DNA of 28,991 bases, taken from a virus. Below are positions 1 through 28,991 of the stretch, piece after piece (within the stretch, counting starts at the first letter, position 1; every line of letters starts with the position of its first letter). The DNA is taken from positions 1 to 28,991 of IMG/VR virus record IMGVR_UViG_3300034105_001244. One strand, given 5' to 3'. A model generated the notes under the pieces. The model did not search any database, had not been told where the DNA came from, and saw only the letters and a program-made list of their open reading frames with translations. Made by a program: the position numbers and the translations under genes.

Positions 1-660
1 TGAATCATAAACATAACTATTCAAATAATAATTAGTAACACTTAAACCAGTGAATGATGAACCTAAAGGATATACATTAGCAAATATTTGATTTAGTGAA
101 CCACCAGTATAATTACTATCGGTTGCTGCTGATAATGAACCTGGAAGATTATTAAATTGATTATTGATTAAATTATTATTCCATAATGTTTGTAATAAAG
201 AATCATTAGAAATAAAATTAGTAATAGTGTTTTGAGAATCAGCAGTAAATGTAAATAATGTACTATAAGTTCCAGCTGTAATAGTTGGACCTACTGTTGT
301 AGCATCATAACCACATTTAACAGTTAACCCCCATGTACGACCAGCATCATAACCACATAATCCTAATACTCTAGTAACATATAATTGACTAGCTTGATTT
401 AAATATTGATTTGCAATATATGGTAATTCATATCTAGGAAAATTAGTAATACCATCTCTCACATCACTAATACCACCAAATATATCAGAAAAGTCATTAA
501 TACTTTTTATTAGTACTGGTTGAAATGCTGGACCAATTAATGTTTCACCCACTAAACCAAGTCTAGTTTTTACTAGCGGTGGTGGCGGTGGTGGCGGTGC
601 TGATGGACTAGGCATCGGCCCAAAATAAATCCATGGTGCTACTGTTATATTATTTCCCAT
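1..660 (-). CDS. Tail sheath paralogue, N-terminal part (runs off window)
   Basis: The reading frame is open for 220 codons from ATG at 658-660 to the left edge, so the 3' part is missing. The protein aligns along its length with the N-terminal part of the 955-residue sheath encoded just upstream. Shared signatures are LGLVGET, GPAFQP, FGG, YELPY, LYVTRVLGL and GYDAGR. This makes it a second sheath-type protein, a structural component of the contractile tail. Its first 30 residues differ: instead of the usual SPGVYTSE arm it has a proline-rich segment (PSPSA followed by seven prolines) before the conserved LVKTRLGLVGET. It is separated from the main sheath by a terminator and has its own ATATTTAT element, so it is probably transcribed on its own. 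It may be a minor or specialised sheath subunit; that role is inference. Confidence 0.88.
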   Translation of the reverse strand, partial: MGNNITVAPWIYFGPMPSPSAPPPPPPPLVKTRLGLVGETLIGPAFQPVLIKSINDFSDIFGGISDVRDGITNFPRYELPYIANQYLNQASQLYVTRVLGLCGYDAGRTWGLTVKCGYDATTVGPTITAGTYSTLFTFTADSQNTITNFISNDSLLQTLWNNNLINNQFNNLPGSLSAATDSNYTGGSLNQIFANVYPLGSSFTGLSVTNYYLNSYVYDS

Positions 661-696
661 ATTGTATTCTTAATTTAAAAATTTTATATCTTATTA

Positions 697-704
697 ATAA
701 ATAT
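697..704 (-). promoter_or_regulatory. Candidate late promoter motif ATATTTAT (sheath paralogue)
   Basis: On the minus strand the sequence reads ATATTTATTAATAA, 36 bases before the ATG at 660 and downstream of the terminator of the main sheath gene. The same octamer in the same orientation occurs before most other transcription units in this window. Its role as a promoter is inferred from that recurrence. Confidence 0.5.
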
Positions 705-710
705 AATAGA

Positions 711-740
711 ATAAAAAAACCCTCGATATTTCGAGGGTTT
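711..740 (-). terminator. Rho-independent terminator after main sheath gene
   Basis: A perfect 10-base-pair stem (AAACCCTCGA paired with TCGAGGGTTT) with a TATT loop lies at 717-740. On the minus strand it is followed by a run of T residues (plus-strand A run 713-719). It starts 22 bases after the stop codon of the main sheath gene, so it should end that transcript before the second sheath gene. Confidence 0.88.
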
Positions 741-762
741 ATTATTTTAATCTAAGTTTTTA

Positions 763-3630
763 TTAGATATTATCGAAGCTTGCTCCAGTATTCATAATGT
801 TAAATTCTAACGTAATGAACTCTAATGCTTTAGTAGGTTTCAAGAATATTCTTCCTACTAATTCTCCTCTATCAATTGATTCTGGAGTATCATCTAGAAC
901 AACTCTAAAGTCAGTTAAACCTCTGTTAGCTCTGATGTTATCCAAGATTGGATTAACAAGAGTTAAGAATTGGTTTCTAACAACTGAATCGTTTTGTTCG
1001 AATAATAATCTGATAGAAACAGCAGATATAAGTTTTCTAGCTTGTAACAATAAACGTCTAACGTTGATTCTGTTAAGAGCTGTATCTTTAACTTGTAAAG
1101 TTTTATTCCCCCAAATTTTAACACCATCAGATGCAAAAGTTGTGATTGGATTAATTCTAGCTTCATACAAGACATCTCTATCTTCTTGAGTTAATTTAAC
1201 CCTAGCTTTGATACAATCAACATCACCTCTTTGGATACCAGCAACTGCGAACCATGGGAAAGAAATATTATCAGTTAATGCGATATTTCTAACTACGTCT
1301 CTTGTAGGTGGCATGTAAATGTACACGTTATTTTCAGTATCATTTACTTGAACCCATGGCCAGTAAGTAGCTGTATAGTTACTATCAAATGAACCATCTA
1401 ATGTTGAAGCAACATCTTCTGGTGTCATTACCTCACCACCAGCATCAATATCAGGTAAGTTAGCAATATATAATGAATCCGCTCTATCAGTTTCAATCAT
1501 TTCAATTGTAGCCTCACATAAGTTACTATTAGTGAATAAATCAATACCTGGAGTAGCAAATACATTAATATTAACTGCCTCTGGGTTTCTAAATGACCAA
1601 ATAGCTTCTAAGTATGCGTAGTAATCAGAATTGATTCCAGCATCACCATTTGATAATGCGATAGTACTGAAGTTACCTTTAGTTTTACCTAAAACACCTT
1701 TAGTTCCAGTTGCAATATATCTATCATTATTAGTTCTACTAGTTCTATATACATCCCATCCATCATATCCACCATATGGTGCAAACGTAAATTTACGTGC
1801 ATATACTTCTTGATATTCACCACCTTGAACTCCAGCTTCAGTTCTAAATTCATTATTACCTACCTCAAATTCAAATACTGGGTAGTAATATAAACCATTA
1901 GCAGCTGTACCAGAAATTAAAATTCTAACATTATCAATAGTTGCACCAGTAGCTTGAACATCCATATGGAATCCTTTAGTCATACCAGTCCATTGATTAA
2001 TAGTTGTACTATCTGGAACACCTTTATAAGTAAAGAAATCCTCTTCAATACCAACTAAATCAGATAAACCTTGATATACTTTTCTTTTTTGAGTTGAACT
2101 AGTAACACCAACATAATTCTTTTTATAAGTAATTGATGGTGAAACAGCTGTACCAGTTTGAGTAGTTTCATATTTTCTAATTGGGTATCCAACAAATCCA
2201 GCTGGGAAAGTATCTGAAATATCAGTACCTTCTTCCATTTCAATTAACACATAATTAGATTTAGATGCGAAATCACCATTTAACGTACCAATTCTTTTAG
2301 CAATATAATTATTAGACATTGGGTCCATACTTAGTTTAGTATATTTCTCGTAAACCGCTTTATTAGAATCAGTATCATAGAAATTTCTAATCTCTAAATC
2401 AAACTCTTTATCATCTGGTTTAATATTAATGATAGACATTTTAAATAATTTATTCGCAGTGTCACCATCAGAAATAGTCCAGAATCTGAATAATCTGAAT
2501 AAGTTAGAACCACGTAATTCAGAAACTACCCATGGAGTAACAGCTGGTTGATAAATTTGTTTGTATTTAGCAAATTTAGTTGAGTAATCAACCAAAGTTA
2601 AATTAATACCTCTAATTTTACTATCTACTACGAAATCATTAAACATTTCAGAGAAAATCTCCTCAACATATACAGCAGTTTTACCATCTTGAGCACCTCT
2701 ACCTAATACTTTAGTAATGTAGTTATTTTTAGTTTTATCAAAAGATAAATCATATTGGAATGCACCAGATACACTAGATGTACCAGTTAACGCAAAATTA
2801 CCATTAGCATCAGTTTCAGCGCCAGTAGCAGTAGTACTAAATGCAATTGGATATGTACCACCAGTAACTTCAAAGTTTAATGATTCATTTCCATCATAAG
2901 CAGCTCTACTTCTTAATAATGCTAATACTTTATTCTCAACATCACTATAACTAGTACCAGCAGAATATACTGTTACACCACTTGTTGTACCAGTAGTAAA
3001 AGCACCAGAAGTTCCAACAGCAGTTAAAAAGAAATTAGTAATACCAGCACCACTAAATGATGAACCAGTTTTCTTATATACTGTGTTAGTACTAGCTAAC
3101 GAACCTACTGGGGATGATGGAACTATCCCATTTAATTCATCAGCTAATAATCCTTCATTAAATAATGTTTGAATGAATGAATCACTTGATGTTAATGCAA
3201 CGATTACGTTAGATGAGTCAGCAGTAAATGAAAATAAACTACCATATGTAGTTCCAGTTCCATTAGTAGCTACTAAAGTTGATGAATCAAGTTCAGCATC
3301 AGCAGTAATAGCCCATGCACGACCAGCGTCATAACCTGATAAACCTAATACTCTCGTAACAAATAATTGATTTGTTTTTGATAAGTAAGATTTAGCTACA
3401 TACGGTAACTCATACTTAGGAGCACCAGTATCTTTATTTTTTGATGCATTTAATCCACCAAAAAATGAGGTGAACTCACCATAATCTTGTACGAAGATTG
3501 GTTGAAATGCTGGACCTTTAGTAGTTTCTCCAACTAAACCTAAGGTTGTTACACCAACTGATTTAGTTACAAACGATAGGTCTTTTTCTGATGTGTAAAC
3601 CCCTGGGCTCACAAATACTTTGTTTGGCAT
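763..3630 (-). CDS. Tail sheath protein
   Basis: This 955-residue protein is the main contractile tail sheath subunit. The N-terminus has the typical SPGVYTSE arm, then LGLVGETTKGPAFQP and YELPYVAKSYL. The C-terminal third carries the conserved sheath core: WGNKTLQ near 840, RINVRRLL near 854 and a final strand region ending with ALEFITLEFNI near 935. T4 gp18 is about 660 residues, so this one is large. The extra length lies in the middle (about residues 90-650), which is rich in Ser, Thr and Gly and probably forms outward-facing domains. Copies polymerise around the tail tube and contract on infection. ATG follows an A-rich leader with no Shine-Dalgarno. The gene has its own candidate promoter (3661-3680) and terminator (711-740). 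Identity is secure; the size of the insertions is the unusual point. Confidence 0.96.
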   Translation of the reverse strand: MPNKVFVSPGVYTSEKDLSFVTKSVGVTTLGLVGETTKGPAFQPIFVQDYGEFTSFFGGLNASKNKDTGAPKYELPYVAKSYLSKTNQLFVTRVLGLSGYDAGRAWAITADAELDSSTLVATNGTGTTYGSLFSFTADSSNVIVALTSSDSFIQTLFNEGLLADELNGIVPSSPVGSLASTNTVYKKTGSSFSGAGITNFFLTAVGTSGAFTTGTTSGVTVYSAGTSYSDVENKVLALLRSRAAYDGNESLNFEVTGGTYPIAFSTTATGAETDANGNFALTGTSSVSGAFQYDLSFDKTKNNYITKVLGRGAQDGKTAVYVEEIFSEMFNDFVVDSKIRGINLTLVDYSTKFAKYKQIYQPAVTPWVVSELRGSNLFRLFRFWTISDGDTANKLFKMSIINIKPDDKEFDLEIRNFYDTDSNKAVYEKYTKLSMDPMSNNYIAKRIGTLNGDFASKSNYVLIEMEEGTDISDTFPAGFVGYPIRKYETTQTGTAVSPSITYKKNYVGVTSSTQKRKVYQGLSDLVGIEEDFFTYKGVPDSTTINQWTGMTKGFHMDVQATGATIDNVRILISGTAANGLYYYPVFEFEVGNNEFRTEAGVQGGEYQEVYARKFTFAPYGGYDGWDVYRTSRTNNDRYIATGTKGVLGKTKGNFSTIALSNGDAGINSDYYAYLEAIWSFRNPEAVNINVFATPGIDLFTNSNLCEATIEMIETDRADSLYIANLPDIDAGGEVMTPEDVASTLDGSFDSNYTATYWPWVQVNDTENNVYIYMPPTRDVVRNIALTDNISFPWFAVAGIQRGDVDCIKARVKLTQEDRDVLYEARINPITTFASDGVKIWGNKTLQVKDTALNRINVRRLLLQARKLISAVSIRLLFEQNDSVVRNQFLTLVNPILDNIRANRGLTDFRVVLDDTPESIDRGELVGRIFLKPTKALEFITLEFNIMNTGASFDNI

Positions 3631-3660: not shown

Positions 3661-3680
3661 TATTATTTAATAATAAATAT
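3661..3680 (-). promoter_or_regulatory. Candidate late promoter of tail sheath gene
   Basis: On the minus strand this is ATATTTATTATTAAATAATA. The core octamer (3673-3680) ends 42 bases before the sheath ATG. The same 20 bases occur, in the gene's orientation, before the neck protein gene at 17818-17837. An exact 20-base match between the leaders of two structural genes points to a shared promoter element. Confidence 0.62.
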
Positions 3681-5324: not shown

Positions 5325-5332
5325 ATAAATAT
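5325..5332 (-). promoter_or_regulatory. Candidate late promoter motif ATATTTAT (fibre gene at 5279)
   Basis: On the minus strand the context is AATATATTTATATACATAA, 45 bases before the ATG at 5279, in the only sizeable spacer of this area (5280-5377). The surrounding TATATAAATATATT (plus strand) is shared with the repeats at 12559-12614. Confidence 0.5.
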
Positions 5333-5377: not shown

Positions 5378-6073
5378 TTAAAGACCGAATCTAGATTTTG
5401 TTGCGTTATAGTTTTGTAAAACTTCTGTAGCTGATAACGCCTTATTATATATTTTAATTGAACCAATATTAAAATTACCATATGTACTACCAGCTTTACC
5501 AATATATAATCTATCAGTAGCATCCCTTAAAGCAACTGTACCACTGCCAACTTTAGTACCCACTAAAACACCGTTCTTATATAATTTAACATTACCATTA
5601 TCATTCCTAACCAGTGTAAAATTTTTCCAAACATTTAAAGTAATTGTATCAGTATATAAACTTGTTGTTGGATAACTTAAAGGTCCTTCATTAAAACCAT
5701 GTGTTGACGATGGAAATACAGCTATACCCCAAGTCCAAACATTTGAATCAAATGAATCTGAACCATAATACAAAATAGGACAAGGTGTTGTTGATTTCAT
5801 ATTAACCCAAATATCGATTGTATTCATGGTACCTAATATTTGACTAGCGATATTAAACGACTCATTAGACCCATCAAATAATAAAGAACCATTATTAGTT
5901 GAATCATAAACTGGTGAGTTTACTAATGTGCCTATATAATTATTACCCGAAATATCTTTTAAAGATGTGGGTGAAAAGTATCTATTATAAGAATTATTGG
6001 TAGCTGCATCTAAATATAACACCAACCCATCTTTAATGATGTTAGGTCCTCTATAATTTTTAGCTGTACTCAT
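5378..6073 (-). CDS. LamG/concanavalin-fold structural protein, paralogue 3
   Basis: A 231-residue protein related to the two LamG-like proteins upstream (6330-7034 and 7034-7753). It shares IIKDGLVLYLDAA near residue 12, LLFDGSNE, the strand SIKIYNKALSATEVLQNYNA and the terminal RFGL. This is the pattern of LamG/concanavalin A-like jelly-roll domains, which bind carbohydrates or act as structural tips in phage adhesion proteins. The ATG overlaps the stop of the 87-residue gene (ATGA), so it is translationally coupled and last in a tight four-gene run. It is the most divergent of the three, lacking the FxSGSTVWN segment. A role in glycan binding at the tail tip is inference. Confidence 0.75.
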   Translation of the reverse strand: MSTAKNYRGPNIIKDGLVLYLDAATNNSYNRYFSPTSLKDISGNNYIGTLVNSPVYDSTNNGSLLFDGSNESFNIASQILGTMNTIDIWVNMKSTTPCPILYYGSDSFDSNVWTWGIAVFPSSTHGFNEGPLSYPTTSLYTDTITLNVWKNFTLVRNDNGNVKLYKNGVLVGTKVGSGTVALRDATDRLYIGKAGSTYGNFNIGSIKIYNKALSATEVLQNYNATKSRFGL

Positions 6074-6333
6074 GGCATTGGTCTATCATCAGTCCATTCT
6101 GGACCATTTAGTATTATCACTATTTCGTCATAAGTATATGGTCCTTCATTTGTTGTTAAAGCTAATACAGATGAAGGTATTTCAACTGAATCCCATTTAA
6201 CAAATGTTTTGGTACCATCAATTGATTTTCTAACTGTATCAATTGATGTTTCTTGTACTTGAGTAAAATCTATTAAATTTAATTCTGATACAGCAAGTAT
6301 CATGAATTTTCTTGTATTGTAATCTTGTATCAT
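6070..6333 (-). CDS. Small conserved-looking protein between LamG paralogues
   Basis: An 87-residue soluble protein, with helical N-terminus (KFMILAVSELNLIDFTQV), a central TSIDTVRKSIDGTKTFVKW segment and an acidic C-terminus ending WTDDRPMP. It overlaps both neighbours by four bases (ATGA junctions), so its translation is coupled to the LamG-fold proteins on both sides. The family is not recognised with certainty. Its size and position would fit a small assembly factor or chaperone for the adjacent adhesins, but nothing in the sequence proves this. Confidence 0.7.
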   Translation of the reverse strand: MIQDYNTRKFMILAVSELNLIDFTQVQETSIDTVRKSIDGTKTFVKWDSVEIPSSVLALTTNEGPYTYDEIVIILNGPEWTDDRPMP

Positions 6334-7034
6334 AATCCAAATCTTTTTTTTATTGCGTTATAATTTTGTAATATTTCAGTTGCTGATAAAGCTCTATTAT
6401 ATAATAAAACAGTACTAAAATAAGCGTTTGAATAAATATCATAATTTTCAACAAAACCAACATAAAATTTAGTTAAAGTACTAGTTACAACTGTTGTATT
6501 TAATCCAGAATTTGATTGATTTAACAATTGACCGTTTACATAAATTTTACCTTTCGTAGCGTTTGTTGCTTGTGAACCATCAAAAACCCCAACAATTTGA
6601 TACCAACCATTTGTCCAAGTCAAAGGTGCTACATTATTATTTGCACCACCAGCAGAGTTACCAAAATAAATATTGCCATCTGTATACCATTCTAAGAAAA
6701 ATCCTTGTCTAACTGAATGTTTCCATGAACCAACAATAATATCTCTATCACTCGCAATCTTTTTAACCCAATAACTAATTGTAAATTGACTACCACCTCT
6801 AATTGTATTAGTCGGTGTAGTACCAAAATCAACATATTCATTTGTTCCGTCAAATAATAAAATACCATTATTACTAGAACTAAAGGTAGGTGCGTTATAT
6901 ATTATACCTTTTTCACTAGATTTACTTAAATCATTCCATACCGTACTGCCACTAACAAATGATTTAGTGTTAGCAGCATCTAGATATAAAACTAAACCAT
7001 CGGTTATCATTTTTTTTGATATAATTCCAGACAT
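6330..7034 (-). CDS. LamG/concanavalin-fold structural protein, paralogue 2
   Basis: A 234-residue protein. The N-terminus has MITDGLVLYLDAANTKSF, then SGSTVWNDLS, ILLFDGTNEYVDFG, a central SYWVKK strand typical of LamG jelly-rolls, and the C-terminus LYNRALSATEILQNYN followed by KKRFGL. It is closely related to the upstream paralogue (7034-7753), so the pair arose by duplication. Its ATG overlaps the upstream stop by one base (TAATG) and its stop overlaps the next ATG. Probable carbohydrate-binding or tail-tip structural protein; the virion location is inferred from the neighbouring fibre genes. Confidence 0.77.
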   Translation of the reverse strand: MSGIISKKMITDGLVLYLDAANTKSFVSGSTVWNDLSKSSEKGIIYNAPTFSSSNNGILLFDGTNEYVDFGTTPTNTIRGGSQFTISYWVKKIASDRDIIVGSWKHSVRQGFFLEWYTDGNIYFGNSAGGANNNVAPLTWTNGWYQIVGVFDGSQATNATKGKIYVNGQLLNQSNSGLNTTVVTSTLTKFYVGFVENYDIYSNAYFSTVLLYNRALSATEILQNYNAIKKRFGL

Positions 7035-7753
7035 TATTTCCCAAATCTACTTTTTAATGTGTTATAATTTTGTAATATTTCAGTTGCAGATAAAGCTCTG
7101 TTATATATTTGTATATTTGACATATTACCATTGAAAGCACTAGAGTAACTACCACCTAGATTTCTATATATACCAATATTTAATGGACTTGTACTGTTGA
7201 ATAATGATGAATAACTACCTACCAAAGTTGATGGTACTAATATTCCATTAACATAAATATTAACTGAGGTTGATGTATGCACAACATTAACATTATTCCA
7301 TGTATTTGTAGTTATAACAGAACTATTAGTAGTATAACTACCAGTTGGGTTTCCACTACAGTTTCCACTAGGAATCCAATACCATTCAATTTTTCCATTT
7401 GTTAATATTGATAAAGAATATGAGAATTGATTACCGTTACACCATTCTTTAGCTGCAATAGTTTGAGTAATACTTAAAGAAACACTTCTAAACCAAAATG
7501 ATAATGTTAAATTATTTGTTATTTGCAAAGAACTATCATTACCTAAAGTAATAAAATCATCACTACCGTCTAATATTATATTACCACCATTACTAGAATT
7601 ATATATCGGTCCATTCGTCAATACACCATTATTATTATTTATCCCTAAATTATTCCATACCGTACTACCACTGATAAAGGATTTAGGGTTAGCAGCATCT
7701 AGATATAATACTAGACCATCAGTTACTATTTTGGGTGAATATCTAAATGCCAT
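7034..7753 (-). CDS. LamG/concanavalin-fold structural protein, paralogue 1
   Basis: A 239-residue protein with KIVTDGLVLYLDAANPKSF at residues 8-26, SGSTVWNNLG, IILDGSDDFITLG, LSFWFRS and the C-terminal IYNRALSATEILQNYN with RFGK. The conserved ends and more variable middle match the two paralogues downstream. The ATG follows the stop of the 1066-residue fibre gene after one base (TAATATG), so it is made from the same transcript. Two cysteines (in WCNGNQ and GNCSGN) are peculiar to this copy. Probably a glycan-binding or capping adhesin subunit; the ligand is unknown. Confidence 0.77.
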   Translation of the reverse strand: MAFRYSPKIVTDGLVLYLDAANPKSFISGSTVWNNLGINNNNGVLTNGPIYNSSNGGNIILDGSDDFITLGNDSSLQITNNLTLSFWFRSVSLSITQTIAAKEWCNGNQFSYSLSILTNGKIEWYWIPSGNCSGNPTGSYTTNSSVITTNTWNNVNVVHTSTSVNIYVNGILVPSTLVGSYSSLFNSTSPLNIGIYRNLGGSYSSAFNGNMSNIQIYNRALSATEILQNYNTLKSRFGK

Positions 7754-11023: not shown

Positions 11024-11031
11024 ATAAATAT
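11024..11031 (-). promoter_or_regulatory. Candidate late promoter motif ATATTTAT (1066-residue fibre)
   Basis: The minus strand reads GCATATTTATTTTATAGAGG, 68 bases before the ATG at 10955. The motif overlaps the end of the palindrome at 11027-11056, so terminator and promoter may share sequence. The leader between the two also has a CTCTATAAA direct repeat (plus strand 10981-10989 and 11015-11023). Confidence 0.4.
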
Positions 11032-12558: not shown

Positions 12559-12614
12559 TTTTTATATAAATATATTATTTTATTAATTACTTTTACTTTT
12601 TATATAAATATATT
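12559..12614 (-). promoter_or_regulatory. Duplicated promoter-like element before 480-residue fibre
   Basis: An 18-base sequence, TTTTTATATAAATATATT on the plus strand, occurs at 12559-12576 and again at 12597-12614, a 38-base period. Each copy contains the octamer ATATTTAT on the minus strand (12566-12573 and 12604-12611). These are 16 and 54 bases from the ATG at 12549, so this gene may have tandem late promoters. Confidence 0.5.
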
Positions 12615-13378: not shown

Positions 13379-13386
13379 ATAAATAT
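13379..13386 (-). promoter_or_regulatory. Candidate late promoter motif ATATTTAT (244-residue fibre)
   Basis: The minus strand reads GCGATATTTATTAAATATAA, 23 bases before the ATG at 13355, in the 43-base spacer after the 188-residue gene. The GATATTTATTNAA context is shared with the sites at 17818 and 27176. Confidence 0.48.
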
Positions 13387-15571: not shown

Positions 15572-15597
15572 ATAAATATTAACGATAATATAAATAT
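15572..15597 (-). promoter_or_regulatory. Two ATATTTAT motifs, candidate late promoter of neck/fibre block
   Basis: On the minus strand ATATTTAT occurs at 15572-15579 and 15590-15597, 12 and 30 bases before the ATG at 15559. The more distal copy is better placed for a promoter. They lie in the 121-base divergent region 15560-15680, which also holds the plus-strand copy at 15633. Confidence 0.5.
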
Positions 15598-17817: not shown

Positions 17818-17837
17818 ATATTTATTATTAAATAATA
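17818..17837 (+). promoter_or_regulatory. Candidate late promoter of gp13-like neck gene
   Basis: The plus strand reads ATATTTATTATTAAATAATA, identical over 20 bases to the sheath promoter region (3661-3680, minus). The core octamer ends 19 bases before the ATG at 17845. This suggests the neck gene can be expressed late, independently of the helicase and glutaredoxin genes. Confidence 0.62.
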
Positions 17838-22959: not shown

Positions 22960-22967
22960 ATAAATAT
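22960..22967 (-). promoter_or_regulatory. ATATTTAT motif very close to a start codon
   Basis: The octamer lies only 4 bases before the ATG at 22955 and inside the short spacer after the lectin-fold gene. This is too close for an ordinary promoter of that gene unless the message is leaderless. It may be a chance match or a general A/T-rich leader. Confidence 0.2.
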
Positions 22968-22972
22968 TTATG

Positions 22973-23818
22973 TTAAGTTGTAAATCCATATTTAGATTTA
23001 AAATAATTCCATACTGTAATCAAACCAGCATTTGGTACAGCACCATCATAAATTAATACTTCTGCAACATCTATTGCACTTGCTTGTGCGTATGTTGAAC
23101 CGTTATAACCACCAGCAATATATAATTTAGCAGTTGAGGATACTGGCATCATTTTTTTATTCCCACCACCAGCAATAGCTGTGCTTTTAAGTGTAGCACC
23201 AGCATAACCAGTACATGTGCCACCACTCATTCTATATGTATAATAAAAGAATTTTTCATCATCAATACCACCAGAACCCCATGGTACACTAATTTTAGTT
23301 GGATTAAATGCTTGGTTAAAATACCACATATCTATAAAATTAGGTCCAGCGTCACCATCAATACCAAATCCTTCAGATTCAGAACCCCAAGCAGCATTAT
23401 ATTCAATTATTGGGTTACCAGAACTCCAAGTTCTTAATGGATTTTTTCTTATAACAAAGAATACTGTGAATCCAGTTGATATAACTTGTAAACTAGCTGA
23501 ATTAGTAGCTGCCATATGTTCTGTATTAACGTCATTAAATTGTACAAATGGGTATGAAGATGATGAACCATAAGGCGCAAATGTAGTGGCAGAATATGAA
23601 GGTGAAGTAATTGTCGTAGCAGTTAAATGATTACCATATATAGTTTGGTCTTGCCAAAATCTAATATCTGTGTTATTAAGTGCTGCTGGGACATAAGGTA
23701 ATCCATTATAAACTCCCTTTAAAGCATCAACCCAAAATACAGCCTTAGCTGTCCCAAATACTGGTATAGGGTCACCTGAACTATATCCTTCTCTAAAATT
23801 AAATGGTACGTTAAACAT
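22973..23818 (-). CDS. Lectin-fold (LamG/ConA-like) structural protein
   Basis: A 281-residue protein with features of the concanavalin A/LamG jelly-roll: AVFWVDALKGV near residue 26, IRFWQDQTIYGNHL, FVQFNDVNTEHMAA, GFTVFFVIRKNP, SAIDVAEVLIYDGAVP and a C-terminal VWNYFKSKYGF. The last element parallels the LQNYNxxKxRFGL ends of the three LamG paralogues at 5378-7753, so it is a distant relative. Its ATG overlaps the stop of the 1113-residue SHAEG fibre, so the two are translationally coupled and probably assembled together. A glycan-binding or fibre-tip role is likely but unproven. Confidence 0.72.
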   Translation of the reverse strand: MFNVPFNFREGYSSGDPIPVFGTAKAVFWVDALKGVYNGLPYVPAALNNTDIRFWQDQTIYGNHLTATTITSPSYSATTFAPYGSSSSYPFVQFNDVNTEHMAATNSASLQVISTGFTVFFVIRKNPLRTWSSGNPIIEYNAAWGSESEGFGIDGDAGPNFIDMWYFNQAFNPTKISVPWGSGGIDDEKFFYYTYRMSGGTCTGYAGATLKSTAIAGGGNKKMMPVSSTAKLYIAGGYNGSTYAQASAIDVAEVLIYDGAVPNAGLITVWNYFKSKYGFTT

Positions 23819-26800
23819 TATCTAAAATCTTTTGCTATTAGACCATACAAGTTTGTACCGTCACTTATGAATGTGAATATATCCACTGAATTGGATGTTG
23901 AGCTTAATACTGGTGCAATACCTGATTGCCATTTATATTGTGTAGCCCATGTTATCAATCTAGAACCAGTAGCATTTTGTTTAACAATCATAGTATAAAC
24001 TGCACCATTCTTAATATTCGTACCACCACTTATACTAGTAGTTGCAGCAGATAATATAACGTGTTGTAAATTACTATTATCCCAGTTTGGTATAAATGAT
24101 GAAGTTAATGTACCAGCAGTATAAACTGGGTTATTTGTTTGACCAGTAAATGTTAAATTACCATTTATCGTTAAACCAGTCATTGTATTAATATTAACAG
24201 TTAAATCACCACTAGATTGTTTAACAGTTAAATTATTATTTGAATATGTAAATCCAGTTACAGATGTTGAACCAGTACTAAATCCAGTTACATTAAATGT
24301 GCTACCACTATTATTAGTAAATATAGCTGTTCCAGTGGAGTTGTTATAAGTTCCACCAGTTACAAATGTATCACTAGTTTTAAATCCAGTTACTGTAAAA
24401 GTACCGCCAGTATTATTTGTAAATGTAGCATTACCATCAGTATAAGTACCACCAGTAACTCTTACATCGGTAGGTAATGTTCTAGTTTTTATTGTACCAT
24501 CAGTACTTTTAACTAAGAATTGAGTTAATGTGTTATCAGTTGTAGCTGACTGTATATTTAAATAAGGTACATAAACAGTATCATCATTACTACCAGCAAT
24601 ACCAGTACCACCTAATACAGCACTTCTATTACCAAATGCTGTTGATTCAGTTGACCAAATAAATGATGTTGTACCAGATGCTTTTGTATTATGACCACCA
24701 GCAAATGTATAATCACCAAATGCTTCAGTATTTTCACCAATTGAAGTGGATGTTAAACCTCTAGCCCATGTTGAATGTCCAGCAGCAAATGAATTAATAC
24801 CATCAGCCATTGTAGCGTTATTTACTGCAAAAGAATAATTTGCTACAGCATCTAAACCACTATCATTTAAAGCTTTAAGCGAATAAGTTCCAGTTGTACC
24901 AGATACCCAATAGCTATCACCACCAGTACCACCACCAGTACCACCACTAATACTACTTAAATTTCTAAAAGCAACATTATTATTAGCGTCTAATGTTAAA
25001 AATCTAATTGTTGTGTTATCATTAGTAACTGTTTTTATATTTAATTTTTGAACATAAACAGTATTATTTGACGAACCAGTAATACTGTCACCACCCAATA
25101 TAACCACACCTACTTTACCATATGGTATAACATTTTGATAACCACCCATAATGAAAGATAATTCACTATTACTAATTGTATTACCAGTACCACCTAAGAT
25201 AGCATTGTAATATCTTGTGAATGCTGGGTTACCATCTGATAAAATACCGTTATCCGAACCACCAATAATAGTAGAACCATTACTATCAGTCATCTCATTT
25301 GAATTACCACCAATAATGGATGAGAATTTAGATGAAATAATTGTGTGGTATTGACCATTTAAAATACTTGATTGTTTACTATTAGTATCTATAGTGTTAG
25401 TAAAACCATTTAATATAGTAGCAGTATCAGAATTATCTATTCTATTAGCATCACCACCAATTATTACCGAATAATTTGGTATAATACCAGCAAGTGAATT
25501 TTCTTGAAAAATATTGTTATTAGCACCACCAAATATTGACGCATAAGTTACACCATTAGCTTCAATAGTTGAATTGTAAGTACCAATAATTGTATTATTA
25601 GATGAACCAAAACCACCACCATCTTCTATATGGCTACCTTCAGAATTTATGATGACTGATGTTGATTGAGATGTTAAATATGAGTTACTTGAGTTGTAAA
25701 TACCATTAAATGAATTATTCCCATCTATAAGATTACTATCACCACCCATGATAACATCACCAACTGCGTCACCACTACCAGAATTATTTTCTATTTTATT
25801 ATTAGAACCAGCACCAATAAATGAATATGTTGGTAAATTAAAATTAAATGTATCAATAACGTTATTATAACCACCAACTATGGCAGAACTATCTGCTTGT
25901 ATTGTACCATTAGCATCACCACCTAACACAACACCATAGTACGTATCAATTAATAAGTTAGCATTACCACCAAAAATACCAGAATTAACACTAGCACCAT
26001 ATAATAAATGTGAATTACCACCCACTATAGAACCAGACTCTGAACCAGATTGGATATAATGGTCTTGACCACCTAAAATGGCTGAGTACGAACCATAAGA
26101 ACCATAATTTCCAGCACCAAATTGACCACTACCACTAACGTATTGGTGAACAAATGACGTATTACCACTAGCAACTACATAACCAGAAGTACCATAACCA
26201 CCAGCATGTGACCCTTCACCACTTGCAATTGTATTATTACCTTCAGCGTGTGATGTAATACCACTTGCTGTTGTAAAATATCCTTCAGCATGACTATAAT
26301 TACCAATAGCCTTTGTACCTTCACCTTCAGAGTGACTAGCAAACCCATTAGCAGTGGTACCCTTACCTTCAGCATGTGATTGACGACCAATAGCTATTGT
26401 TTTAGCACCTTCAGAATGACTATCCGTACCTAACGCTTGTGTATCAGAACCTTCAGAATGACTTGTTGTACCAGATGCTATTGTATACTCACCTTCAGCA
26501 TGTGAAGAGTTACCTTTAGCTTGTGACCCATATCCTTCAGCATGTGAATAATTACCAATAGCCTTTGTGACAATACCTTCAGCATGTGAATAATCACCTT
26601 GTGCAGTAGTTTCAGAACCTTCAGCATGTGAATAATCACCTTGTGCAGTAGTTTCAGAACCTTCAGCATGAGAATAATCACCACTAGCTGTTGTAAACTC
26701 ACCTTCAGCATGTGACGCGACACCACTAGCTATTGTGAAAGTACCTTCAGCATGTGACGCACTATTAAGAGCATGTGCATTATAACCTTCAGCATGTGAA

Positions 26801-27159
26801 TAATCACCACCAGCAGTTGTATCATAACCTTCAGCTACTGAATAGTTACCAGTTGCATCTAAACCAGTTCCGTTATTTACTTTTATTGATTTAGTACCAG
26901 TAGACCCAGATGTCCAATAGAAATCACCACCAGCACCTCCACCACCACCTGAACCAACTTCAAATGTGAAATCTTCTCCATTTAATTTTTTTAATGTAAC
27001 AAAACTACCAGAAGTTTCAGCAGTATAAATTACATTACCTTTTAAATAAAGAAAGTTATTATCTAATTCTGTATGGGATAATACATTTCCTTTTGTATTA
27101 TCGTTATAAGGTATTAAAAATGGACTAGTTACAGTCCTAAGTATTAATCTATCGCTCAT
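23818..27159 (-). CDS. SHAEG-repeat (YadA-head-type) tail fibre without S74 domain
   Basis: A 1113-residue fibre. The N-terminus (VLSHTELDNNFLYLKG at 26-41) is a common phage fibre attachment motif, followed by a glycine-rich hinge (69-79). Residues 107-320 hold about 16 copies of a 14-residue repeat of the type GDYSHAEGxxTTAxG, as in the beta-roll heads of YadA-type trimeric adhesins. Next comes a long series of IxGGxxNxI units (about 355-700). Then shorter YSFA/HAEG remnants, FTNNTGGTFTVTGF modules shared with other fibres, and a C-terminal tip domain (IVKQNATGSRLITWATQYKW near 1060) typical of fibre ends. A trimeric rod with a receptor-binding tip is expected. Two of the repeats are identical at the DNA level. 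It is coupled to the downstream lectin-fold gene. Confidence 0.88.
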   Translation of the reverse strand: MSDRLILRTVTSPFLIPYNDNTKGNVLSHTELDNNFLYLKGNVIYTAETSGSFVTLKKLNGEDFTFEVGSGGGGGAGGDFYWTSGSTGTKSIKVNNGTGLDATGNYSVAEGYDTTAGGDYSHAEGYNAHALNSASHAEGTFTIASGVASHAEGEFTTASGDYSHAEGSETTAQGDYSHAEGSETTAQGDYSHAEGIVTKAIGNYSHAEGYGSQAKGNSSHAEGEYTIASGTTSHSEGSDTQALGTDSHSEGAKTIAIGRQSHAEGKGTTANGFASHSEGEGTKAIGNYSHAEGYFTTASGITSHAEGNNTIASGEGSHAGGYGTSGYVVASGNTSFVHQYVSGSGQFGAGNYGSYGSYSAILGGQDHYIQSGSESGSIVGGNSHLLYGASVNSGIFGGNANLLIDTYYGVVLGGDANGTIQADSSAIVGGYNNVIDTFNFNLPTYSFIGAGSNNKIENNSGSGDAVGDVIMGGDSNLIDGNNSFNGIYNSSNSYLTSQSTSVIINSEGSHIEDGGGFGSSNNTIIGTYNSTIEANGVTYASIFGGANNNIFQENSLAGIIPNYSVIIGGDANRIDNSDTATILNGFTNTIDTNSKQSSILNGQYHTIISSKFSSIIGGNSNEMTDSNGSTIIGGSDNGILSDGNPAFTRYYNAILGGTGNTISNSELSFIMGGYQNVIPYGKVGVVILGGDSITGSSNNTVYVQKLNIKTVTNDNTTIRFLTLDANNNVAFRNLSSISGGTGGGTGGDSYWVSGTTGTYSLKALNDSGLDAVANYSFAVNNATMADGINSFAAGHSTWARGLTSTSIGENTEAFGDYTFAGGHNTKASGTTSFIWSTESTAFGNRSAVLGGTGIAGSNDDTVYVPYLNIQSATTDNTLTQFLVKSTDGTIKTRTLPTDVRVTGGTYTDGNATFTNNTGGTFTVTGFKTSDTFVTGGTYNNSTGTAIFTNNSGSTFNVTGFSTGSTSVTGFTYSNNNLTVKQSSGDLTVNINTMTGLTINGNLTFTGQTNNPVYTAGTLTSSFIPNWDNSNLQHVILSAATTSISGGTNIKNGAVYTMIVKQNATGSRLITWATQYKWQSGIAPVLSSTSNSVDIFTFISDGTNLYGLIAKDFR
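26577..26660 (-). repeat. Perfect 42-base tandem duplication inside SHAEG array
   Basis: Bases 26577-26618 and 26619-26660 are identical. Each encodes one 14-residue unit containing SETTAQGDYSHAEG. The neighbouring units differ at many positions, so this looks like a recent slippage or unequal-crossover duplication that keeps the reading frame. Confidence 0.85.
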
Positions 27160-27175
27160 TGGTTTGTTTTATTAA

Positions 27176-27183
27176 ATAAATAT
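27176..27183 (-). promoter_or_regulatory. Candidate late promoter motif ATATTTAT (1113-residue fibre)
   Basis: The minus strand reads GATATTTATTTAATAAAAC, 16 bases before the ATG at 27159 and just after the terminator of the upstream fibre gene. The position between a terminator and a start codon supports a promoter. Confidence 0.52.
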
Positions 27184-27189
27184 CTATAA

Positions 27190-27221
27190 AAACAAAAAAG
27201 CTGGAGACTTACCCCAGCTTT
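27190..27221 (-). terminator. Rho-independent terminator after S74 fibre gene
   Basis: On the minus strand the stem AAAGCTGG (27214-27221) pairs with CCAGCTTT (27197-27204) around a 9-base loop. A T-rich run follows (27190-27199). It lies 18 bases after the stop codon at 27240-27242. Confidence 0.85.
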
Positions 27222-27239
27222 ATTTATTTTAATTTGTTT

Positions 27240-28991
27240 TTATAGGTTAGCGTTATCTAATCTAGTCTTCAATTCTAAATTTTGTTTAGTCAATTCTTTA
27301 ATAGCCTCAACCAATACTGGAATCATACCTACATAATCAACTGTTAACATATCTTCAGTATTAGGTAATAAATTAACTAATTCTGGGATTACATTATTAA
27401 CTTCTTGAGCTATAAAACCTAATTTAGTTCCTTCTATCTCAACTTCTTCATTGAATTCAAATGAAACACCTCTAAGGTTATTTACTTTTGTTAATGAATC
27501 AGATAAATCAGTTATATTATGTTTAAGTCTTTCATCAGATGGTGTTACTATAACTTTACCACTAGCATTTGTTGATAAACTAGCAGCATTTTTAAGATTA
27601 TCAATAATTAAATCTGGTACATAAACTGTATTAGCAACAGTACCAGTAATATAATCACCAAATACAATTGTTGTTGCACCGCTTGCTACTGAATTATACC
27701 CATGTACAAATGAATAGTTACCACTAGCTATATTAGTTGAACCACCAGCATGAGAATAATCACCAATAGCTGTTGTAAATATACCTTCACTATGTGAACC
27801 AGAACCTTGAGCTATTGTATAATAACCTTCAGCATGTGCACCTTGACCATTTGCAAATGTAAATTGACCTTCAGCATGTGAACCATAACCAAATGCTTGA
27901 GTATTATCACCTTCAGCATGTGACGCTTGACCAAGAGCTTTTGTAGATTGACCTTCAGCATGTGATGTAATACCAGTAGCTGTTGTATTGTATCCTTCAG
28001 CATGTGATGTATGACCACTAGCTGTTGACAACCAACCTTCAGCATGTGAACCATAACCACCACTAGCAGTTGTAGCATAGCCTTCAGAATATGATATCCA
28101 ACCAGTAGCTCTTGTATTATAACCCATAGCAAGTGAATAATCACCAGATGCGACTAAACCACTATCATTATTAGCCTTAATAGAATATAATCCAGTAGCA
28201 CCAGATATCCAAGAATTATCTGTACCAGTGACAGTAAATGTACCACCAGTATTATTTCTAAATGTAGTTGTTCCATTTGAATAAGTACCACCAGTAACAA
28301 ATACATCAGCACCACCACCTGACCCAATGATAATATTACCACTAGCATCGATACCTAAATTATTAACACTAGTACCAGCTGGTACTGATTTTATATTTAA
28401 TTTATTTACATAAACTGTATTTGCTGTTGCACCAGTAATATTATCACCTAAAACAATAACACTTGAACCATTTGCAAAACTTGTAGAACCATGTACAAAT
28501 GAATATAATCCACTAGCTTTTGCATAATAACCACCAGCATGAGAATAATCACCAATAGCTGTTGTATAAGAACCTTCAGCATGTGATGCTTCGCCACTAG
28601 CTATCGTATAAGAACCTTCAGCATGTGAACCAAAATTACCACTAGCTGTTGTAGAACTACCTTCAGCATGTGAACCATAATTACCACTAGCTCTTGTATA
28701 ATATCCCTCAGCATGTGAATCTTCACCAATAGCTTTTGTGTAATACCCTTCAGCATGTGACGCTTGACCAATAGCTGTTGTAGCAAGACCTTCAGCATGT
28801 GATGTATAACCACTAGCTATTGTAGCGTTACCTTCAGAGTGTGTATAATCACCAAATGCAGTTGTCCCCTCACCTTCAGCATGTGACGATGACCCCAATG
28901 CTTTTGTACTACTACCTTCAGCATGAGATGTATCACCAGACGCTATTGCTGCAATACCTTCAGCATGTGAATTATTACCAATTGCAGTTGT
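27240..28991 (-). CDS. SHAEG-repeat tail fibre with S74 chaperone domain (5' end outside window)
   Basis: The frame is open to the right edge (583 residues in the window), so the N-terminus is missing. A TTG at 28896-28898 is not the start, because SHAEG repeats continue upstream of it. Two blocks of YadA-head-type repeats are separated by an FVTGGTYSNGTTTFRNNTGG module and a SIKANNDSGL segment. A few units have 15 residues (ASGNYGSHAEG). The C-terminal 100 residues are an intramolecular S74 chaperone (endosialidase type): PSDERLKHNI, then GVSFEFN, KLGFIAQEV, VDYVGMIPVLVEAIKEL and a coiled coil. In this family the chaperone helps trimerise the fibre and cuts itself off before the Ser of SDERLK (Ser codon at 27537-27539). 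Followed by a terminator. Confidence 0.9.
   Translation of the reverse strand, partial: TTAIGNNSHAEGIAAIASGDTSHAEGSSTKALGSSSHAEGEGTTAFGDYTHSEGNATIASGYTSHAEGLATTAIGQASHAEGYYTKAIGEDSHAEGYYTRASGNYGSHAEGSSTTASGNFGSHAEGSYTIASGEASHAEGSYTTAIGDYSHAGGYYAKASGLYSFVHGSTSFANGSSVIVLGDNITGATANTVYVNKLNIKSVPAGTSVNNLGIDASGNIIIGSGGGADVFVTGGTYSNGTTTFRNNTGGTFTVTGTDNSWISGATGLYSIKANNDSGLVASGDYSLAMGYNTRATGWISYSEGYATTASGGYGSHAEGWLSTASGHTSHAEGYNTTATGITSHAEGQSTKALGQASHAEGDNTQAFGYGSHAEGQFTFANGQGAHAEGYYTIAQGSGSHSEGIFTTAIGDYSHAGGSTNIASGNYSFVHGYNSVASGATTIVFGDYITGTVANTVYVPDLIIDNLKNAASLSTNASGKVIVTPSDERLKHNITDLSDSLTKVNNLRGVSFEFNEEVEIEGTKLGFIAQEVNNVIPELVNLLPNTEDMLTVDYVGMIPVLVEAIKELTKQNLELKTRLDNANL

What the first reader, a model, noticed from the sequence alone, without database searches (positions are those of the whole stretch)
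1..3630. Two tandem tail-sheath genes, one with a polyproline N-terminal arm
The gene at 1-660 aligns with the N-terminal part of the 955-residue sheath but is separately terminated and promoted. Its N-terminal arm, the part that links neighbouring subunits in known contractile sheaths, is replaced by a segment with seven consecutive prolines. A second sheath protein could form a specialised ring (at the baseplate or neck) or a mixed sheath.
Basis: partly seen in the sequence, partly recalled or inferred. Interest (0 to 1): 0.6.

Follow-up and report, generated by a model that had tools for sequence, protein, structure and literature searches.

The report
Second tail-sheath protein with altered arms
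This bacterial virus carries two copies of the gene for its contractile tail sheath; the second copy is full length but has lost the conserved linking arms that join sheath rings, so it probably forms a special end ring of the tail rather than a duplicate of the main sheath.

Summary
The gene at 1-660(-) is cut by the window edge, but a sister contig carries it whole: an uninterrupted 984-aa sheath paralog (S2), 42% identical to the 955-aa sheath (S1). Three related contigs carry the same S1-S2 tandem. The four S2s form one clade beside their own S1s, so one duplication is the simplest origin. S2 evolves faster but under purifying selection; 76 single-sheath relatives lack it.

The seven-proline run is real but confined to this species. 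The shared oddity is broader: of 134 canonical sheaths, 132 keep an SPG-type N-arm motif and 128 a GASF-type C-arm; all four S2s have neither. Their C-terminal handshake domain has diverged too, while the body is conserved. A distant 484-kb phage shows the same split in its own sheath pair.

In solved tails, both arms plug into the ring nearer the baseplate, and the first ring's arms plug into a baseplate wedge protein. S2 is therefore most likely a terminal-ring sheath, probably baseplate-proximal (inferred; no virion data). Two-sheath phages (PaBG) and multi-sheath injection systems (AFP/PVC) are known, so this is a new variant of a known kind.

The parts
1..660 (-). 5' part (220 aa) of the second sheath gene S2; complete at 984 aa in sister contig L003:7036-9990
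   Evidence: Foldseek of the full-length model: T4 gp18, E 3.5e-20; phrog_23 tail sheath E 1.7e-46 for the full protein
577..660 (-). S2 N-terminal arm (residues 1-28); lacks the SPG motif of canonical sheaths
577..597 (-). seven consecutive proline codons (residues 22-28), species-specific
   Evidence: absent in L005, L018, L083
697..704 (-). ATATTTAT promoter-like motif upstream of S2
   Evidence: consensus match only
717..740 (-). intrinsic terminator between S1 and S2
   Evidence: consensus match only
763..3630 (-). canonical tail sheath gene S1, 955 aa
   Evidence: phrog_23 E 1.9e-61; PF17482 29.4 bits (cut-off 26.9)
766..831 (-). S1 C-terminal arm (residues 934-955, ending TGASFDNI), the motif S2 lacks
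3547..3630 (-). S1 N-terminal arm (residues 1-28, VFVSPGVYTSEKDL), the motif S2 lacks
3673..3680 (-). ATATTTAT promoter-like motif upstream of S1
   Evidence: consensus match only

Best explanation
S2 is a real, full-length tail-sheath paralog that arose by one duplication of S1 in the ancestor of this phage lineage and then became specialised. Most likely it forms a single terminal hexameric ring of the contractile sheath, probably the first ring on the baseplate, while S1 builds the rest. Shown: homology, full length, tandem location near the tube gene, one clade, purifying selection, loss of both arm motifs, diverged handshake domain, conserved body, predicted sheath fold. Inferred: that S2 is in the virion, and that its altered arms plug into a baseplate wedge protein (T4 gp25 type, BW1) and its altered handshake domain meets a tube-initiator protein instead of the ordinary tube.
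For: S2 is 984 aa, uninterrupted, and predicted with a sheath fold (pLDDT 79, pTM 0.72; best PDB match T4 gp18, E 3.5e-20). The four S2s are one clade (100/100) next to their own S1s (100/98), with matching internal order. dN/dS is 0.36-0.47 for S2 and 0.19-0.28 for S1. Positions invariant in 79 single-copy sheaths are kept in S2 at 74% in the body, but 22% in the N-arm, 43% in the handshake core and 35% in the C-arm (lost in all four S2s: Fisher P 4e-5, 1.5e-5 and 6e-3 against the body). Of 134 canonical sheaths 132 keep the N motif and 128 the C motif; all four S2s and the second sheath of LR756508 keep neither. Distant single-copy sheaths still mostly keep them (33 and 29 of 35), so divergence alone does not explain the loss. 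Structural papers: ring n donates both arms to ring n-1, and BW1 accepts the arms of the first ring (PMC10811340; PMC11915804). Among solved multi-sheath systems, Pvc4 occurs only in entry 6j0n and Afp4 only in 6rao and 6rgl (6j0n and 6rao are titled as baseplates; the title of 6rgl was not seen), and the match of both to the sheath profile stops well short of their C-termini, unlike that of the paralogs numbered 2 and 3.
Against: No virion, proteomic or multimer evidence. The acceptor side of the handshake domain has also diverged, which a neck-proximal ring would predict as well. The gp25/BW1 gene of an S2 phage was not on any contig at hand, so co-divergence could not be tested. S2 evolves faster, so part of the change may be relaxed constraint. 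In LR756508 the odd paralog lies directly behind the neck genes, which would point to the neck end for that case.
Confidence: 0.42

Rival explanations
1. Two-component sheath of the PaBG type: S1 and S2 both build the length of the tail, alternating or mixed.
For: PaBG has two sheath paralogs at 38-39% identity that arose by duplication, and both appear as bands in its virion proteome (PMC7412058). S1 and S2 are 42% identical and both full length.
Against: In a mixed lattice S2 arms must enter S1 acceptors, yet both arm motifs are lost in all S2s, whereas both PaBG paralogs keep an N-arm SAGVY motif. The terminator between the genes allows separate dosage.
Confidence: 0.2
2. S2 is the neck-proximal last ring, whose handshake domain accepts the tail terminator's beta-hairpin instead of sheath arms.
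For: The handshake core 848-933 is diverged in S2. The terminator augments the last sheath ring in Mu and phiCD508. In LR756508 the odd sheath is adjacent to neck genes.
Against: A last ring still donates its arms to an S1 ring below, so its arms should stay canonical; they are the most altered part.
Confidence: 0.15
3. S2 is not a lattice subunit: an assembly factor, an alternative sheath expressed under other conditions, or a decaying copy.
For: Faster evolution and loss of arm motifs.
Against: Four species keep about 1000-codon open frames with dN/dS below 0.5 and a conserved body. The window's S2 carries the same upstream motif as S1.
Confidence: 0.15
4. The apparent second gene is an assembly artefact or a fragment at the contig end.
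For: In the window it is cut at the edge.
Against: It is complete in L003, continues towards the tube gene in L004, and has orthologs in three other assemblies.
Confidence: 0.01

Closest known systems
Pseudomonas phage PaBG two-component tail sheath (Kurochkina et al. 2018, cited in PMC7412058)
   Same: Two sheath paralogs of about 38-42% identity in one phage, from gene duplication within a lineage whose relatives have one.
   Different: PaBG genes are unlinked (about 47 kb and 165 kb on the record) and encode 528 and 547 aa; both keep an N-arm motif. Here the genes are tandem, encode 954-1125 aa, and one paralog has lost both arm motifs.
Afp2/Afp3/Afp4 and Pvc2/Pvc3/Pvc4 sheaths of extracellular contractile injection systems
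   Same: Several sheath paralogs in one machine; Afp4 and Pvc4 appear in baseplate structures and match the sheath profile poorly at the C-terminus.
   Different: Three paralogs, headless particles, much shorter proteins (354-451 aa); no close sequence relationship to S2.
T4 gp18 tail sheath
   Same: Best solved-structure match for S2 and a close second for S1 (E 1.4e-31, after the T4-like Klebsiella phage sheath at 1.2e-33).
   Different: Single sheath gene; canonical arms; 659 aa against 955-984.
Tandem sheaths of uncultured huge phage LR756508 (484 kb)
   Same: Two sheath genes side by side, one canonical and one without either arm motif.
   Different: Not in the S2 clade, so apparently an independent case; order reversed and next to neck genes.

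Membership tests
Contractile tail sheath (gp18 type; PF17482/PF04984, phrog_23) | Sheath fold | tested here: met
   AF2 of S2, pLDDT 79; Foldseek T4 gp18 E 3.5e-20, probability 1.00
Contractile tail sheath (gp18 type; PF17482/PF04984, phrog_23) | C-terminal sheath domain PF17482 above curated cut-off | tested here: met
   S2 34.4 bits against 26.9; S1 29.4
Contractile tail sheath (gp18 type; PF17482/PF04984, phrog_23) | Middle domain PF04984 above curated cut-off | tested here: inconclusive
   S1 29.2 bits against 31.4; not listed for S2 at E 0.01
Contractile tail sheath (gp18 type; PF17482/PF04984, phrog_23) | Gene near the tail tube gene | tested here: met
   gp19-like tube gene, 162 aa, 3.2 kb downstream of S2 in L004
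Contractile tail sheath (gp18 type; PF17482/PF04984, phrog_23) | Part of the virion sheath | not testable with these tools
   No virion data
Interchangeable main-sheath subunit of this phage group | Canonical N- and C-arm motifs | tested here: not met
   0 of 4 S2s against 132 and 128 of 134 canonical sheaths
PaBG-type two-component sheath | Two paralogs from a lineage-specific duplication | tested here: met
PaBG-type two-component sheath | Both proteins in the virion | not testable with these tools
   No proteomics for this phage
PaBG-type two-component sheath | Both paralogs keep an N-arm motif, as both PaBG proteins do | tested here: not met
   PaBG gp76 and gp213 both SAGVY; S2 has none
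AFP/PVC multi-sheath system | Three sheath paralogs, one confined to the baseplate | tested here: not met
   Two paralogs found on the contigs at hand; ring position not testable

The most novel reading that the evidence does not exclude
Phages have at least twice independently turned a duplicated sheath gene into a dedicated terminal-ring (starter or collar) sheath by rewriting both linker arms and the handshake domain while keeping the body: a sheath adaptor ring that I know only from injection systems.
Probability: 0.33. Interest if true: 0.65.

Novelty: new variant of a known kind. Interest (0 to 1): 0.48.

Why it matters
How sheath polymerisation starts on the baseplate and stops at the neck is normally handled by non-sheath proteins. 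A sheath paralog whose divergence is concentrated in the connecting arms gives a natural separation of function: it makes testable which arm-acceptor pairings are needed to start, extend or end a contractile sheath, and gives a sequence signature (loss of the SPG and GASF arm motifs) for finding such rings in other phages.

Tried and rejected
Artefact or truncation: rejected by sister contigs. Polyproline as the key feature: rejected, not conserved. Motif loss as a mere effect of divergence: tested with 35 distant single-copy sheaths, which mostly keep both motifs. A second S2 elsewhere in single-sheath relatives: none in large contigs of 94-306 kb or in other huge contigs. Co-divergence of gp25/BW1 with S2: gp25 was found only in single-sheath relatives, not on any S2 contig. 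Neck proteins of 351, 174 and 383 aa: median identity to relatives 56, 68 and 72%, with no comparator to decide. A first AF2 run with 4 sequences was useless (pLDDT 31). No AF2 model of S1 could be made (cap), so low confidence in the S2 arms (1-27, 974-984) cannot be contrasted with S1. A scan of bacterial genomes found no relatives, hence no host. L215 looked recoded, but reading TAG or TGA as a residue does not restore its frames.

Full report
What is there. The window (an IMG/VR virus fragment, 28,991 bp) holds two sheath genes on the minus strand: S1, 763-3630, 955 aa, and the first 220 codons of S2, 1-660. S1 matches sheath families (phrog_23 E 1.9e-61; PF17482 above cut-off) and solved T4-like sheaths. 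S2 is 45% identical to S1 over residues 27-204 (E 2.2e-45). The seven-proline run (residues 22-28, 577-597) is real and is repeated in a sister contig. A 10-bp-stem terminator separates the genes, and both carry the ATATTTAT motif that precedes most genes here.

The rest of the gene. Contig L003 carries S1, a gap of about 100 bases and the complete S2 of 984 aa; contig L004 carries 904 aa of S2, then a gp19-like tube gene 3.2 kb further on. Further tail-like genes (a tape-measure-like 894-aa protein, a large hub-like protein, a LysM-like 107-aa protein; my reading, not tested against families) follow in the same contig. S2 is therefore neither truncated nor frameshifted. With a 75-sequence alignment it is predicted as a sheath (pLDDT 79.2, pTM 0.72); the best solved match is T4 gp18, E 3.5e-20, and viral models agree.

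Distribution and origin. Three further contigs have both genes: L005 (S1 83%, S2 58% identical), L018 (954 + 1037 aa) and L083 (1125 + 1035 aa). Seventy-six distinct relatives show one sheath followed by the tube gene with no second sheath between, and large contigs of 94-306 kb contain one sheath only. In the tree the four S2s are one clade (100/100), the S1s of these phages another, and S1s plus S2s together are separated from the single-sheath relatives (100/98). With far outgroups included, the S2 stem is long and its depth unsure. The simplest reading is one duplication followed by faster evolution of S2; dN/dS is 0.47 and 0.36 for S2 pairs against 0.19 and 0.28 for S1 pairs, all below 1.

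What changed in S2. The closest S2 ortholog (L005) has no polyproline, nor do L018 and L083, so that feature belongs to one species. The shared change is larger. Of 303 positions invariant in 79 single-copy sheaths, S2s keep on average 74% in the body (29-847), 22% in the N-arm (1-28), 43% in the C-terminal handshake core (848-933) and 35% in the C-arm (934-955). The domain borders were set by analogy with the Milano sheath (PMC10811340), not from a structure of this protein. Of 134 distinct canonical sheaths, 132 have an SPG-type N-arm motif and 128 a GASF-type C-arm; S2s have neither. Thirty-five distant single-copy sheaths keep them 33 and 29 times, so distance alone does not explain the loss. 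The tandem pair of LR756508 shows the same split between one canonical paralog and one without either motif, and does not group with the S2 clade; its branch is very long, so independence is likely rather than certain.

How it probably works. In solved contractile tails, each ring donates its N- and C-arms to the handshake domain of the ring nearer the baseplate; the first ring's arms go into BW1 (gp25 type), and the last ring's handshake domain takes the terminator's hairpin (PMC10811340; PMC11915804; PMC11948020). A subunit with altered arms and a conserved body is what a baseplate-proximal first ring would look like; a diverged tube-facing handshake domain would suit a tube-initiator ring. 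A neck ring should keep its arms, and a mixed sheath needs arms that S1 can accept. Pvc4 and Afp4, seen only in entries 6j0n and 6rao/6rgl (the first two titled as baseplates), also match the sheath profile poorly at the C-terminus. The step from sequence to ring position is inference. The acceptor region is also changed, and no S2 contig reaches gp25, so the neck and mixed models remain open. The proline run sits in the linker that acts as a hinge in other sheaths (PMC11948020); a stiffer linker there is possible but unsupported.

Comparison with the known. Two sheath genes in a phage are known: PaBG has two from a lineage-specific duplication, both found in the virion (PMC7412058), and a survey notes further phages with two copies (PMC9230969). 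PaBG differs in having unlinked genes and an N-arm motif in both. AFP and PVC particles have three paralogs (for AFP; for both). This case is therefore a new variant: a tandem pair in which one paralog has systematically rewritten its connectors.

Limits. There are four S2 sequences, all from metagenomes. Host and virion are unknown, only one sheath could be modelled, and no multimer modelling was possible.

Noticed in passing
window, upstream of most genes (e.g. 697-704, 3673-3680, 5325-5332, 11024-11031, 12566-12573, 13379-13386, 15572-15597, 17818-17825, 22960-22967, 27176-27183): Motif ATATTTAT just upstream of gene starts on the coding strand; 18 matches in the window against 9.7 expected (none of 100 shuffles as high): a likely phage promoter element.
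   Followed up: partly
L005 8016-9824(-), L018 5606-7432(-), L083 5872-7674(-): An approximately 600-aa ORF that looks like a homing endonuclease (DUF723/DUF4379 zinc-finger repeats, weak match to an REase domain) sits between the two sheath genes in three relatives but not in the window species.
   Followed up: partly
L131-L136, L166-L169: Single sheath proteins of 1636-1643 aa with a very large inserted segment, against about 950 aa in relatives.
   Followed up: no
L007 8062-10536 and 11551-14025 (LR756508, 484-kb phage): A separate tandem pair of 824-aa sheaths; the upstream one lacks both arm motifs and directly follows neck-like genes.
   Followed up: partly
L007 938-3763(-): SNF2-type helicase with what looks like an intein inserted at its P-loop (GVGK...THNT).
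   Followed up: no
window 23818-28991 and 5378-7753: Tail-fibre-like proteins with long SHAEG (YadA-head) repeats and an S74 chaperone domain; three similar-looking genes at 5378-7753, the one tested having a concanavalin-like lectin domain (Laminin_G_3).
   Followed up: no
L118 5229-8027; L215: Sheath gene split into two ORFs in L118 and into many pieces in L215; reading TAG or TGA as a residue does not restore L215.
   Followed up: partly
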